Positions 39,660 through 62,967 of a DNA stretch of 64,000 nt are shown piece by piece. Made by a program: the position numbers and the translations under genes. The first letter of the stretch is position 1; each line of letters opens with the position of its first letter. The notes beneath the pieces were generated by a model. That model saw only the letters and a program-made list of their open reading frames with translations. It made no database searches and had not been told where the DNA came from. This DNA is from Cyclobacterium plantarum (GTDB lineage: Bacteria; Bacteroidota; Bacteroidia; Cytophagales; Cyclobacteriaceae), in NCBI RefSeq assembly GCF_011290685.1, contig NZ_JAANYN010000001.1, positions 355,325 through 419,324 of the forward strand, given 5' to 3'.

Positions 39660-40688
39660 ATGATAGAAGTAATAAAGTACCCCAGTGTATTGGAAAGCAG
39701 TAATCTTGAGCTCAGGAACGTGGCAAAGGATTTGGTCTCGGGACTTAAAATTTACCATGACAATATTGGTTATTTGGTTGGGGACTTGGCATTGTCTGAA
39801 GGTACATCGCCTCACAGAAACATCAATAGTTCACCTGAAGAAATTGATTACAAAATCTTTTTGAAAGCCGGACTTCTTTTGGCCTCCCAGAAGTTGGGTA
39901 GTCCCATTACAGTGACTACAGGTTTTCCATTTTCCACTTTTCAGGTTTTTAAGGAAAATGCATATCGGTTGTTGGAAAATGAACACATAATTGAATATGA
40001 TACCCAGACCTTCGGTGGAGGGGGCAGAAAAAAAATGGCTGTTGAAGTAGACAGGGTAGCAGTAATTCCCGAAGTGGTGGGTTGCAGTATGGCTGTAAGG
40101 CAAATGTACAGTGATGCACCAAAAAATTTCTTTATGATAAGTCTGGGCTATGGTACTATGGAAGCCATTTTGAGCACAGAAGGAGGCTTGGTACAAAGGT
40201 CAAGTGTGTCCACCTTTGGACTGCGGTATGCCATTAATCTGATTACCAGAGAGCTTCAGAAGGACAATTACCTTGATCTGAAAACCGAACATCAGATCGA
40301 TCAATACTTTAGTGAGGGTACAATTATATTAAACAGAAAACGTTTAGACTTAAGAGAATTGCGCAAGCAGGTGATCACCCAATATTACAATGACGTGATT
40401 TCCCCATCCATAAGAAAAGCTTTCTCCGATAGTGATTTTTCTAAATCCGCAGATCTCTATTTGGCCGGAGGTGGGGCCAATTATGTGGAGTTGGTAAATC
40501 TTTTCAGGGATGAATTTGATGGGTTATTAAATGTGCATGTTCCAGATTCTCCAGAACAAATGGCTTCGATAGGTTATTGCTATAATAGTTTGGCCATAGG
40601 TGGAGGGGCTAAGGATAAGGCTGTTGGGTTGGACCTGGGAAACAGCTCAACTATCCTTACTACATTCAAACAAGAAAAAGAAGATTAG
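39660..40688 (+). CDS. ParM/StbA-like actin homologue, apparently circularly permuted
   Basis: A 342-residue protein of the actin-like ATPase fold. It begins directly at IKYPSVLES, a block that in ParM-type proteins follows the N-terminal phosphate-1 loop. The order is then as usual: YLVGDLALSEG (39-48), VTTGFPFSTF (85-94), VIPEVVGCSMAV with probable catalytic E138, phosphate-2 ISLGYGTMEAIL (with S161 where Asp is usual), adenosine motif AGGGAN (269-274) and the closing QMASIGYCYNSL. After a Gly-rich linker (GGGAKDK) comes AVGLDLGNSSTILTTF (321-336; D325, G327), a phosphate-1 motif at the wrong end. Joining C terminus to N terminus would rebuild a normal ParM order. It is followed by a 30-codon ORF and a bactofilin gene, suggesting a cytoskeletal role. 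Confidence 0.82.
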   Translation: MIEVIKYPSVLESSNLELRNVAKDLVSGLKIYHDNIGYLVGDLALSEGTSPHRNINSSPEEIDYKIFLKAGLLLASQKLGSPITVTTGFPFSTFQVFKENAYRLLENEHIIEYDTQTFGGGGRKKMAVEVDRVAVIPEVVGCSMAVRQMYSDAPKNFFMISLGYGTMEAILSTEGGLVQRSSVSTFGLRYAINLITRELQKDNYLDLKTEHQIDQYFSEGTIILNRKRLDLRELRKQVITQYYNDVISPSIRKAFSDSDFSKSADLYLAGGGANYVELVNLFRDEFDGLLNVHVPDSPEQMASIGYCYNSLAIGGGAKDKAVGLDLGNSSTILTTFKQEKED

Positions 40689-40704
40689 TCATATAAAATC
40701 AAAA

Positions 40705-40797
40705 ATGGCTCAGCCGACACACAAATGGATGAAGTCCATCATAGGAGATTATCCAGAAAGTCGGGAACCTTCAGAAGGGATAAAATATGACCTTTGA
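40705..40797 (+). CDS. Possible 30-residue small protein
   Basis: ATG to TGA, reading MAQPTHKWMKSIIGDYPESR and then EPSEGIKYDL. It lies 16 bases after the actin-like gene and 18 bases before the bactofilin gene, in an otherwise tightly packed operon. The ribosome-binding region is weak and AT-rich, as is normal for Bacteroidota. Composition (no low-complexity runs, Trp, Tyr, Pro) looks coding-like. No family is recognised; its reality needs comparison with related genomes. Confidence 0.4.
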   Translation: MAQPTHKWMKSIIGDYPESREPSEGIKYDL

Positions 40798-40815
40798 AAA
40801 TCAAAATATAATCAG

Positions 40816-41382
40816 ATGAAATTTGGATCCAACAAGCAACAAAACGAAGAACCAAATGTGGGAAAAGTGACGGTTTTGTCACTTGGATTTGAACTTACAG
40901 GAGACATCATCTCTAAAAGTGATATACGTGCGGACGGAATATTGGTAGGCAGTATTCGGACCGATAAAAGAGTAGTGGTGGGAGAAAAGGCCTCTATTAC
41001 CGGCGATATCATTGCAGAAGAAATCAGCATTAGCGGAGAAGTTGTTGGTGACTTGTTCATTAAAGGAGAAACGACCATTTATGCCAATGCAAAGGTTTCA
41101 GGTAATATCAAAACCAGTTCCATTTTTATCCACAAGGGAGCCCAAATCAATAGTGGTATTCAGGTATTGGCACCCAAAGAAGTTGAGGAAGCTTCCAAAT
41201 CAAGCAAAATCAATTCGGTAAGCAGAGAGGAGCTTTACTCCATGTTAGATGATCGCTCCACTACGAAGAGGAACAAGGAGGTGCCGGTGAAGCCCATATC
41301 CCAGCCCAAAACAAAGACGTATACCGATTCTTCAACAGATGGCGATTCTGATACTAACATGGATTATCCCAGGTCCTGGTAA
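40816..41382 (+). CDS. Bactofilin
   Basis: A 188-residue polymer-forming protein. The core (about 22-120) is a right-handed beta helix with the bactofilin repeat pattern: GFELTGDIISKSDIRADG, GSIRTDKRVVVGEKASITGD, EISISGEVVGDLFIKGETTI and KVSGNIKTSSIFIHKGAQ. The C-terminal tail (about 125-188) is polar and disordered. Bactofilins form nucleotide-independent filaments used in shape, stalk and envelope scaffolding. It ends the actin-like operon and is closed by a strong terminator. A second bactofilin is encoded at 55599. Confidence 0.92.
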   Translation: MKFGSNKQQNEEPNVGKVTVLSLGFELTGDIISKSDIRADGILVGSIRTDKRVVVGEKASITGDIIAEEISISGEVVGDLFIKGETTIYANAKVSGNIKTSSIFIHKGAQINSGIQVLAPKEVEEASKSSKINSVSREELYSMLDDRSTTKRNKEVPVKPISQPKTKTYTDSSTDGDSDTNMDYPRSW

Positions 41383-55598: not shown

Positions 55599-56066
55599 AT
55601 GTGGACCAAAGAACGAAAAATTCAGGAAGAGATGGAAATGGCTAGCGCAACTTCAGTTTTTGCACCGGGATTGAGTATCAAAGGTAATGTAGAGGCAAGC
55701 AGTGATATCCGGATTGAAGGAGAAATTGCAGGAGATGTCACCACCGGTAGAAAGGTGATTGTTGGTGTTTCCGGCAAAATCACCGGTAATATCAAAGCCT
55801 CAGAGGTCTGTGTGATGGGGGAGGTCTTGGGAGATATTTTTGTACAGGATCTCGCCAGGTTTACCGCCGAAGCCAGGATGAAAGGAAATGTCTATTCAGG
55901 AAAAATTGAAATCGAATCAGGAGCGGATATGGAGGTGACCCTTTCCAAACCAAAGAAAAGTGGTGCAAACTTTACCGTTCCTTCAACAGAAAATCAGGCT
56001 AAACCCGCAGAAAACAAGGATACATCCAAAAAAACCGGAAAGGAAATGGTCAAAATGGATCATTAA
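55599..56066 (+). CDS. Bactofilin (second copy)
   Basis: A 155-residue bactofilin. The beta-helix core (about 20-110) shows the pattern GLSIKGNVEASSDIRIEG, GKITGNIKASEVCVMGEVLG and RMKGNVYSGKIEIESGAD. A short polar tail of Lys/Thr/Pro follows. Shorter than the copy at 40816. It stands alone and its stop overlaps the convergent trans-sulfuration gene by four bases. Confidence 0.9.
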   Translation: MWTKERKIQEEMEMASATSVFAPGLSIKGNVEASSDIRIEGEIAGDVTTGRKVIVGVSGKITGNIKASEVCVMGEVLGDIFVQDLARFTAEARMKGNVYSGKIEIESGADMEVTLSKPKKSGANFTVPSTENQAKPAENKDTSKKTGKEMVKMDH

Positions 56067-61734: not shown

Positions 61735-62280
61735 ATGAAAAAAGCAAATTTGATGACACCTTCCAGAATAACCTTACTATTTATTTCCGCCTTACTGTTT
61801 TGGAGGTGTGAAGGTCCCATAGGACCACAAGGCCCTCCGGGTGCTGATGGCCTCGATGGAGTCAATATTGTAGGCGAAGTTTTTGAAATCGTCGGGGATT
61901 TTATTCCCGGAAGTGATTTCCGCCTTCGTGGAGAGTACGGATTTGATTTATTGGAATCAGATAAAGTTTTGATATATCGATTGGATGGTACAGACCAGGA
62001 GGGTACTGATATCTGGAGGCTTATCCCTCAGGTAGTTTTCCATGAGGAAGGTATCTTCACTTATGATTACGATTTTACCTACTTTGATTATACCATCTTT
62101 TTGAATGGTGACTTTGATTTGAACAATCTGGAGCCTGCTTTGACCGATGATCAAATATTCCGGGTACTCATTATCCCTGCTGACAGGATTGATTTGAGAA
62201 TGGATTTTTCAGATCATCAGGGCGTACTTGAAATGCTGGAAATCGATGAGGAGGATATAAAGCGAATTTCTTTAAATTAA
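61735..62280 (+). CDS. Lipoprotein-like protein with short collagen-like stalk, copy 1
   Basis: A 181-residue protein. After a hydrophobic N terminus (ITLLFISALLFW) comes R-C25, then EGPIGPQGPPGADGLDG, about five G-x-y triplets. The lipobox is odd (FWRC rather than a small residue before Cys). A globular part follows with blocks shared with the next paralogue: IWRLIPQVVFHEEGIFTYDY and LEPALTDDQIF. The C-terminal end is acidic. In such proteins collagen triplets form a stalk displaying the head at the surface. ATG 61753 is a possible later start. Function unknown. Confidence 0.8.
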   Translation: MKKANLMTPSRITLLFISALLFWRCEGPIGPQGPPGADGLDGVNIVGEVFEIVGDFIPGSDFRLRGEYGFDLLESDKVLIYRLDGTDQEGTDIWRLIPQVVFHEEGIFTYDYDFTYFDYTIFLNGDFDLNNLEPALTDDQIFRVLIIPADRIDLRMDFSDHQGVLEMLEIDEEDIKRISLN

Positions 62281-62310
62281 TAATACCTGAGAAGATTAAC
62301 ATTATCCGAG

Positions 62311-62346
62311 AAAAACAGTTTATCATAAGGTAGGCTGTTTTTTTTG
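62311..62346 (+). terminator. Terminator between the two collagen-stalk lipoprotein genes
   Basis: Stem AAAAACAG / CTGTTTTT with an inner TATC / GGTA pairing and a following T-run. Confidence 0.6.
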
Positions 62347-62421
62347 TTTGTTGTTGGATATACAAAAATTACCCTTTATCTTTCAAATAAAGCATTATAT
62401 TATTCAGGTAAACCAAGATTT

Positions 62422-62967
62422 ATGAAAAAGATTTTATACTTGTTTGCATTCGTATTAGTGTTGTCTTTGCCGGCATGCGAGGGCCCCGAGGGACCCCAGG
62501 GCCCCCCCGGTCTGGATGGAGTGGACGGTGAGGATGGGGAAGATGGAATAGAGGTGTTGAATTTGGTATTTGAAGGAGTGGTGACCTTCTCAGAGGAAAA
62601 TGATTTTGCCATTGGATCACAATTTGAACTTGGGCAAGGGGACAATTTGCTGGTTTTTCTTGAATGGGCTCAGGCCGAAGGTAATTCCTTGTGGAGGCAT
62701 CTTCCACAAAATGTTTTTTTTGATGAGGGTGCCATATTGACTTACAATTATCAATATACGACCACTTTTTTCAATGTGTTCATGCAAGGAAATTTTGATC
62801 TTACTCAATTGGAACCGGAATGGACAGATAATCAAAGAATAAGAATCGTATTGCTGCCTGGGTTCTTTGTTGATGAGAATGCGAGAGTAGATTTAAGTGA
62901 CTTCGATGCAGTTATGGAATTGATAGGTAAGGATGAAAGCGATATCGTAGAGATTGATTTCGATTGA
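62422..62967 (+). CDS. Lipoprotein with short collagen-like stalk, copy 2
   Basis: A 181-residue protein, the same length as its neighbour. Signal MKKILYLFAFVLVLSLPA with lipobox Cys C19, then EGPEGPQGPPGLDGVDGEDG followed by EDG, about seven G-x-y triplets, two more than copy 1. The head shares W-R-x-L/I-P-Q-x-V/F-F and the GNFDLTQLEPEWTDNQRIRI block with copy 1, so the two are tandem duplicates that have since diverged. ATG 62422 is the signal-peptide start; the longer ORF to 62344 reads through the intergenic terminator. Confidence 0.84.
   Translation: MKKILYLFAFVLVLSLPACEGPEGPQGPPGLDGVDGEDGEDGIEVLNLVFEGVVTFSEENDFAIGSQFELGQGDNLLVFLEWAQAEGNSLWRHLPQNVFFDEGAILTYNYQYTTTFFNVFMQGNFDLTQLEPEWTDNQRIRIVLLPGFFVDENARVDLSDFDAVMELIGKDESDIVEIDFD

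What the first reader, a model, noticed from the sequence alone, without database searches (positions are those of the whole stretch)
39660..40688. A ParM-like actin that looks naturally circularly permuted
Seen: the protein starts at IKYPSVLES, and no phosphate-1 motif precedes it, in the protein or in about 27 open codons upstream of the ATG. The rest follows the usual order: YLVGDLALSEG, VIPEVVGCSMAV, phosphate-2 ISLGYGTMEAIL, adenosine AGGGAN and QMASIGYCYNSL. After this normal end comes a Gly-rich linker and then AVGLDLGNSSTILTTF, which has the D-x-G form of the N-terminal phosphate-1 strand of ParM/StbA/actin proteins. Joining the C terminus to the N terminus restores the canonical order. 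Known: in actin-fold proteins phosphate-1 is N-terminal. Inference: the N-terminal strand and loop have moved to the C terminus. The phosphate-2 Asp also appears to be Ser (S161). I do not know of a described family with this layout.
Basis: partly seen in the sequence, partly recalled or inferred. Interest (0 to 1): 0.88.

Follow-up and report, generated by a model that had tools for sequence, protein, structure and literature searches.

The report
Naturally circularly permuted bacterial actin
A conserved bacterial actin relative appears to carry its first ATP-gripping strand at the wrong end of the protein, and its gene usually sits beside a gene for another cytoskeletal protein, bactofilin.

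Summary
Window 39660-40688 (+) encodes a ParM-like actin with no N-terminal phosphate-1 hairpin and a GLDLGNSST hairpin at the C terminus. In 66 of 66 loci read (the window's included; lowest pairwise identity 36%), the tail G-x-D-x-G-N-x-x-T is present and no D-x-G lies at the N terminus. With the tail moved to the front, 8 of 8 members tested match Pfam ALP_N from position 1 and gain 3.7-12.7 bits; 3 shuffled tails do not. PHROG 691 agrees. The phosphate-2 Asp is lost in 66 of 66. New here: 58 of 66 loci have a bactofilin gene downstream. Best reading: an ancient circularly permuted actin-like ATPase working with a bactofilin, probably in envelope or shape control. That the tail fills the phosphate-1 site is inferred: structure prediction failed and was then switched off, and hhalign and PSSM tests did not favour phosphate-1 over phosphate-2. 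Seven relevant paper searches showed no natural permuted actin.

The parts
39660..40688 (+). circularly permuted ParM/ALP-like actin, 342 aa
39660..39704 (+). new N terminus (residues 1-15), runs straight into the P-S-V-x-E strand that follows phosphate-1 in a canonical phage ParM-like protein
   Evidence: phage: ALDLGYGWTKGKLGPSLFRQPSVLGE; P8, S9, E12 in 66 of 66
40065..40100 (+). connect-1 region IPEVVGCSMAVR with invariant Glu138 (catalytic-Glu position by recalled ParM/actin comparison)
   Evidence: E138 in 66 of 66
40128..40172 (+). phosphate-2 hairpin FFMISLGYGTMEAIL; Asp replaced by Ser161, Glu168 invariant
   Evidence: position 161 is S 63, G 2, N 1; E168 66 of 66
40461..40487 (+). adenosine motif LAGGGANYV (residues 268-276)
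   Evidence: G270-G272 in 66 of 66
40557..40592 (+). connect-2 helix QMASIGYCYNSL, the usual end of the fold
   Evidence: in relatives the end of the MreB_Mbl profile falls here, weakly
40620..40667 (+). displaced phosphate-1 hairpin AVGLDLGNSSTILTTF (residues 321-336), after a short variable linker
40816..41382 (+). bactofilin gene next to it (188 aa)
   Evidence: PF04519 E 2.8e-21; bactofilin downstream in 58 of 66 loci

Best explanation
The gene encodes a member of an old family of actin-like ATPases, not seen on plasmids, whose chain is a circular permutation of the ParM/ALP actin. Shown by sequence: the phosphate-1 hairpin is absent from the N terminus and a hairpin of that form is present at the C terminus in all 66 loci read; the chain now starts at the strand that normally follows it. 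Inferred: the old C-terminal helix and the old N-terminal strand lie close together in actin folds (recalled), so the short linker, about nine residues here, joins them and the tail folds back into its usual slot and rebuilds the ATP site. Inferred: loss of the phosphate-2 Asp, with Glu138 and Glu168 kept, slows or alters hydrolysis and favours stable filaments. The gene lies directly upstream of a bactofilin gene in most loci (adjacency shown, co-transcription inferred), so the actin probably positions, orders or tethers a bactofilin scaffold at the envelope and so steers local wall synthesis. A role in cell curvature is a further guess: the named carriers include Cyclobacterium, Lunatimonas, Lunatibacter and Pleomorphovibrio, and Cyclobacterium cells are rings or horseshoes.
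For: Rotation, ALP_N bits native to rotated: 42.9 to 51.2, 34.1 to 42.2, 43.3 to 49.7, 47.5 to 53.4, 40.7 to 44.4, 53.6 to 63.4, 34.5 to 47.2, 39.7 to 47.9; all 8 rotated start at profile position 1, the native ones at 16-21. Three of four shuffled tails made were tested: 43.4, 43.6 and 44.1 bits, starting at 12-16. Two of three constructs made with the protein's own phosphate-2 hairpin in front were tested: 45.3 and 37.1, starting at 4; the tail fits better. PHROG 691 (partition protein): 3 of 3 rotated members match from position 4-6, the native ones from 45-52, gains about 6 bits; the one shuffled tail tried gains 0.8 and starts at 47. Conservation: 66 of 66 loci have the tail, none has an N-terminal D-x-G. 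Bactofilin downstream on the same strand in 58 of 66, in 52 of these within 300 bases. In locus L052 an M23 peptidase and a TPR protein also adjoin. The window's genome has a separate MreB, so this is an additional actin. Very weak support: profile A1 aligns its last positions to the N-terminal strand of four BiP chains, at domain scores of 1.5 bits or less.
Against: hhalign against 10 canonical ParM-like proteins did not score the rotated profile above shuffled tails in either mode, and the native profile scored higher than the rotated one; the tail alone aligned best, with 0.6% probability, to their phosphate-2. A PSSM of the tail scored phosphate-2 above phosphate-1 in 5 of 6 MreB proteins; in 10 ParM-like proteins its best place was phosphate-1 in 2, phosphate-2 in 6, neither in 2, nearly all within the range of shuffled proteins. 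PDB profile searches were marginal and the rotated profile was not better than the native one. Eight of 66 loci showed no bactofilin downstream. Distribution is patchy (13 of 84 genera of the family). No polymerisation, ATP binding or phenotype is known. Curvature rests on few named genera.
Confidence: 0.72

Rival explanations
1. The core has lost phosphate-1 and the C-terminal D-x-G-N hairpin is an added phosphate-type hairpin (for example a copy of phosphate-2) that acts in trans, docking into the neighbouring subunit of a filament rather than into its own chain.
For: The tail alone aligns best, weakly, to phosphate-2 of canonical ParM-like proteins and scores phosphate-2 above phosphate-1 in 5 of 6 MreBs and more often in ParM-like proteins. 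The two hairpins of the actin fold are internal duplicates (recalled).
Against: In ALP_N and PHROG 691 the tail fits the first strand, and the protein's own phosphate-2 put there fits less well in 2 of 2. No other phosphate-1 is found in the chain or upstream. A strand swap between subunits would still be a permutation in sequence.
Confidence: 0.13
2. The protein keeps the actin fold as a scaffold for bactofilin but no longer hydrolyses ATP, because the phosphate-2 Asp is lost. This can be true together with the permutation and differs from it only in activity, so its odds are not exclusive of the main reading.
For: Asp replaced in 66 of 66.
Against: Glu138, Glu168, the GGG adenosine loop and tail D325, G327, N328, T331 are invariant in 66 of 66, which would be odd in a site that had lost nucleotide binding.
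Confidence: 0.3
3. A plasmid-type ParM segregation gene carried on the chromosome.
For: Matches ALP_N and PHROG 691 partition protein.
Against: No match to the protein in 72,556 plasmid records. The usual neighbour is a bactofilin. ParR or parC repeats were not searched for. Two records of one phage match, at 24.6% over 54% of the chain.
Confidence: 0.04
4. Annotation or sequence artefact: a different start or an upstream ORF supplies phosphate-1.
For: None found.
Against: Median 7 open codons upstream and no conserved upstream motif in 66 loci. Homologues in seven families of genomes keep the layout.
Confidence: 0.01

Closest known systems
ParM / Alp actin-like proteins (Pfam ALP_N PF17989; PHROG 691 partition protein), e.g. 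Bacillus phage vB_BboS-125 partition protein YP_009841805.1
   Same: Actin-like profiles match; strand P-S-V-x-E after phosphate-1; 24.6% identity over 54% of the chain
   Different: Phosphate-1 at the C terminus, phosphate-2 Asp lost, no plasmid match, usually next to a bactofilin gene
Chromosome-encoded ParMs, Dh-cParM1 (PDB 8x1i; PMC12270681, start of abstract and two passages seen)
   Same: Best PDB hit of the family profile (E 0.00047); a ParM on a chromosome; its abstract reports filaments and nucleotide hydrolysis
   Different: The words permut-, bacteroid- and bactofilin do not occur in the paper's main text
MreB
   Same: Phosphate-2 pattern G-x-G-T-x-E and tail D-[LI]-G-x-A-x-T resemble MreB; MreB is a cell-shape actin (recalled; PMC5502672 passages)
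   Different: MreB has canonical order and is encoded separately in the same genome
Bactofilins working with wall enzymes (CcmA, BacA; PMC5502672 passages; PMC10945521, listing and start of abstract only)
   Same: A bactofilin gene; in L052 also an M23 peptidase gene upstream
   Different: The passages seen name MreB beside bactofilins in stalk growth, but no actin gene linked to a bactofilin gene

Membership tests
ALP/ParM-like actin fold | Significant match to a curated actin-like profile | tested here: met
   ALP_N 42.9 bits, cut-off 26.3; PHROG 691 E 1.6e-17. MreB-like_C 26.4 bits, just under its cut-off of 27.8
ALP/ParM-like actin fold | Canonical motif order phosphate-1, connect-1, phosphate-2, adenosine, connect-2 | tested here: not met
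   No N-terminal D-x-G and a C-terminal G-x-D-x-G-N-x-x-T in 66 of 66
ALP/ParM-like actin fold | Phosphate-2 Asp | tested here: not met
   S 63, G 2, N 1 of 66
ALP/ParM-like actin fold | ATP binding and filament formation | not testable with these tools
   No assay
Circularly permuted actin | Rotated sequence matches canonical profiles over a longer range and better than native or shuffled | tested here: met
   8 of 8 by ALP_N, 3 of 3 by PHROG 691; not seen by hhalign or in PDB profile searches
Circularly permuted actin | Tail is phosphate-1 and not phosphate-2 in character | tested here: inconclusive
   ALP_N favours phosphate-1 over the own phosphate-2 in 2 of 2; PSSM and tail-only hhalign lean to phosphate-2
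Circularly permuted actin | Tail occupies the phosphate-1 slot in the fold | not testable with these tools
   Structure prediction failed, then was switched off
Plasmid ParMRC segregation system | Adjacent ParR adaptor and parC repeats | not tested
   No search for ParR or parC was made
Plasmid ParMRC segregation system | Found on plasmids | tested here: not met
   No match in 72,556 plasmid records at E 0.01
Bactofilin-linked gene pair | Bactofilin gene downstream on the same strand | tested here: met
   58 of 66 loci within 3 kb, largest distance 1214 bases

The most novel reading that the evidence does not exclude
A naturally circularly permuted actin, old enough to be shared by several classes of its phylum (by descent or transfer), forms an ATP-controlled filament that templates a bactofilin scaffold, a two-polymer cytoskeleton that sets cell curvature such as the rings of Cyclobacterium.
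Probability: 0.25. Interest if true: 0.93.

Novelty: new variant of a known kind. Interest (0 to 1): 0.83.

Why it matters
Known actin-fold proteins are described with phosphate-1 at the N terminus (recalled). A stable natural permutation would show that this strand need not come first, would move the free termini to a new face of the subunit, and bears on folding and filament assembly. The link to bactofilin would make it possible to test whether a nucleotide-driven polymer controls a nucleotide-free one. The gene pair is small and occurs in culturable bacteria with striking shapes.

Tried and rejected
Looked for an N-terminal phosphate-1 by alternative start, upstream ORF or frameshift: none conserved. 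Looked for canonical-order relatives in the phylum with a 25-row profile: 26 places in 24 of 395 genomes; 25 run over the whole profile to position 337-340 and one is a 53-residue frame at a contig end. hhalign, rotated versus 20 shuffles, in two runs: no gain (rotated 120.7, shuffles 116.9-123.8, native 125.6; rotated 129.2, shuffles 124.9-132.6, native 132.7); one search used an option that may have forced global mode, so one search repeated it locally. In one search the rotated alignment did begin at the template's phosphate-1 (query 7, template 8), but so, nearly, did two shuffles. PSSM: cannot tell phosphate-1 from phosphate-2. PF14450 FtsA hits to the tail were not counted, because that profile probably models the phosphate-2 half (recalled). 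PDB profile searches with native and rotated ten-row alignments: marginal, not better when rotated. Viral contigs with A1: 26 pattern matches, no relative. Plasmids: none. The ALP_N family search by genome missed the gene in the window's own genome (0 of 1) although hmmscan finds it, so the 6 of 198 is a lower bound. Bactofilin tree (40 rows chosen by me): linked bactofilins are not one clade, and many branches are long; the window's linked copy groups with five other linked copies of its family and apart from the nine bactofilins of genomes without a hit to the actin. Of 68 distinct places, two were dropped before the counts: G700 (protein identical to the window's) and G796 (fragment). The bactofilin profile used was built from 15 neighbours found, so those match it by construction; the bactofilin identity of two neighbours was checked by Pfam. 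Locus L168, counted as without bactofilin, has only 1450 bases downstream. Cell shape could not be tested across genomes, because most hosts are unnamed.

Full report
Observation. Eight codons upstream of the ATG are open, not about 27. Pfam ALP_N matches residues 5-141 at profile positions 19-148 (E 7.4e-11), so the first 18 positions of the domain are missing at the front. PDB sequences give no phmmer hit up to E 10; NCBIfam gives none.

Homologues. A pattern scan of the genome collection gave 16 named loci, 88-100% identical: Cyclobacterium, Pleomorphovibrio, Lunatibacter, Lunatimonas and two MAGs named only to order or family. These sets overlap. Outside the window's own family the hits are in genomes marked same phylum, not same class, in families f35, f37, f40, f42, f53 and f54. 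Two genomes of f54 carry two copies. I take the window's genus to be Cyclobacterium because L001, a Cyclobacterium MAG, encodes an identical protein.

The permutation. I read 66 loci: 43 of the 44 places and 23 further places (dropped: one identical protein, one fragment). All 66 lack a D-x-G in the N-terminal region. All 66 have G323, D325, G327, N328 and T331 in the tail; a strict expression found the tail in 61, and one search showed that the other five differ only in the residue two before the Asp motif's G or thereabouts (M or A for L, V, I), with the motif intact. Lowest pairwise identity is 36%; 35 rows remain after collapsing at 90%. The linker before the tail varies in sequence and a little in length. 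Scans of up to 600 bases upstream show no conserved phosphate-1.

Rotation tests. With the tail moved to the front, 8 of 8 tested members match ALP_N from position 1, gaining 3.7 to 12.7 bits. Three shuffled tails of four made gain 0.5 to 1.2 bits and do not reach position 1. The protein's own phosphate-2 hairpin in front, two of three made, gains 2.4 and 3.0 bits and starts at position 4. PHROG 691 partition protein: the native match starts at profile position 52, 45 and 47 for three members, the rotated one at 6, 4 and 6, with gains of 5.8 to 6.2 bits; the one shuffled tail tried starts at 47 and gains 0.8. A canonical phage ParM-like protein shows the joint by eye: ALDLGYGWTKGKLGPSLFRQPSVLGE beside AVGLDLGNSSTILTTF plus IKYPSVLES here.

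Results that do not support it. hhalign against ten canonical ParM-like proteins scored the rotated profile within the range of 20 shuffles and below the native profile, in two runs, and alone the tail fell, at 0.6% probability, on phosphate-2. A PSSM of the tail scored phosphate-2 above phosphate-1 in 5 of 6 MreBs; in the ten ParM-like proteins its best place was phosphate-1 in 2, phosphate-2 in 6 and neither in 2, with scores mostly inside the shuffled range. Rotated and native ten-row profiles both found only marginal PDB hits. The native 25-row profile put its last positions on the N-terminal strand of four BiP chains, but at 1.5 bits or less. The two hairpins are duplicates of each other in the actin fold (recalled), so sequence fixes the tail as a phosphate hairpin more firmly than as phosphate-1; that assignment rests on ALP_N, PHROG 691 and the absence of any other copy.

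Active site. Position 161, Asp in canonical phosphate-2, is Ser in 63, Gly in 2 and Asn in 1 of 66; E138 and E168 are invariant. Slower or altered hydrolysis is an inference. The window's genome also has an MreB (L130) and two more MreB_Mbl-matching frames, one of 443 residues that I take to be FtsA (recalled).

Neighbourhood. The next gene (40816-41382 +) is a bactofilin. A bactofilin match lies downstream on the same strand within 3 kb, or as far as the fetched stretch ran, in 58 of 66 loci: in 52 within 300 bases, in the other six at 368 to 1214. The 8 without are L051, L171 and L172 (one genus), L053, L054, L059 and L168 (another genus; L168 shows only 1450 bases downstream) and L167. In L051, L171 and L172 a pentapeptide-repeat protein ends about 50-70 bases upstream (Pfam for L051, motif counts of 54 each for the other two). 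In L052 the order is M23 peptidase, actin, TPR protein, bactofilin; L056 has the same gene clusters but was not itself read by Pfam. The 12 genomes of the window's genus have 4 bactofilins each, one of them 5, against 0-2 in 17 other relatives.

Function. Bactofilins position wall enzymes and help shape cells (PMC5502672, passages). [quoted passage not shown] The names Lunatimonas, Lunatibacter and Pleomorphovibrio suggest curved cells too (recalled; the search gave no description). Many other carriers are unnamed, so curvature is a hypothesis only.

Literature. Seven searches bear on the permutation or on an actin-bactofilin link; three more were on CorM and cell shape. None of the listed titles or abstract starts reports a natural circularly permuted actin, and the phrase circularly permuted actin occurs in no held paper. 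Most listed papers were not opened, among them PMC6669507 and PMC6695626. PMC7203096 holds the words permuted, actin-like protein and bactofilin, but only the first part of its text is held for reading and none of them is there, so I did not see the passage. PMC1079889 (passages) speaks of circular permutation among kinase folds in general. The chromosomal ParM paper PMC12270681 (passages) has no word beginning permut- or bactofilin. The library lacks most subscription journals and preprints.

Noticed in passing
window 55599-56066 (+): A second bactofilin gene about 15 kb from the first; in 11 of 12 genomes of the window's genus two bactofilin matches lie about 15 kb apart on one contig.
   Followed up: partly
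window 40689-40815: The gap between the actin and bactofilin genes is 127 bases here but 4 bases in most other loci of the genus; it holds a 30-codon stretch from an ATG, MAQPTHKWMKS.
   Followed up: no
L051, L171, L172: A pentapeptide-repeat gene (a beta-helix fold, recalled) just upstream of the permuted actin in the one genus group of f37, which lacks the bactofilin neighbour.
   Followed up: partly
L057, L058, L173, L174 (genomes G335, G379): Two copies of the permuted actin per genome, each with a bactofilin-like match downstream.
   Followed up: no
relatives of the window genome: Four to five bactofilins in 12 genomes of the window's genus against 0-2 in 17 other relatives.
   Followed up: no
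window 61735-62967 (+): Two adjacent similar ORFs with collagen-like GPQGPPG stretches near the N terminus.
   Followed up: no
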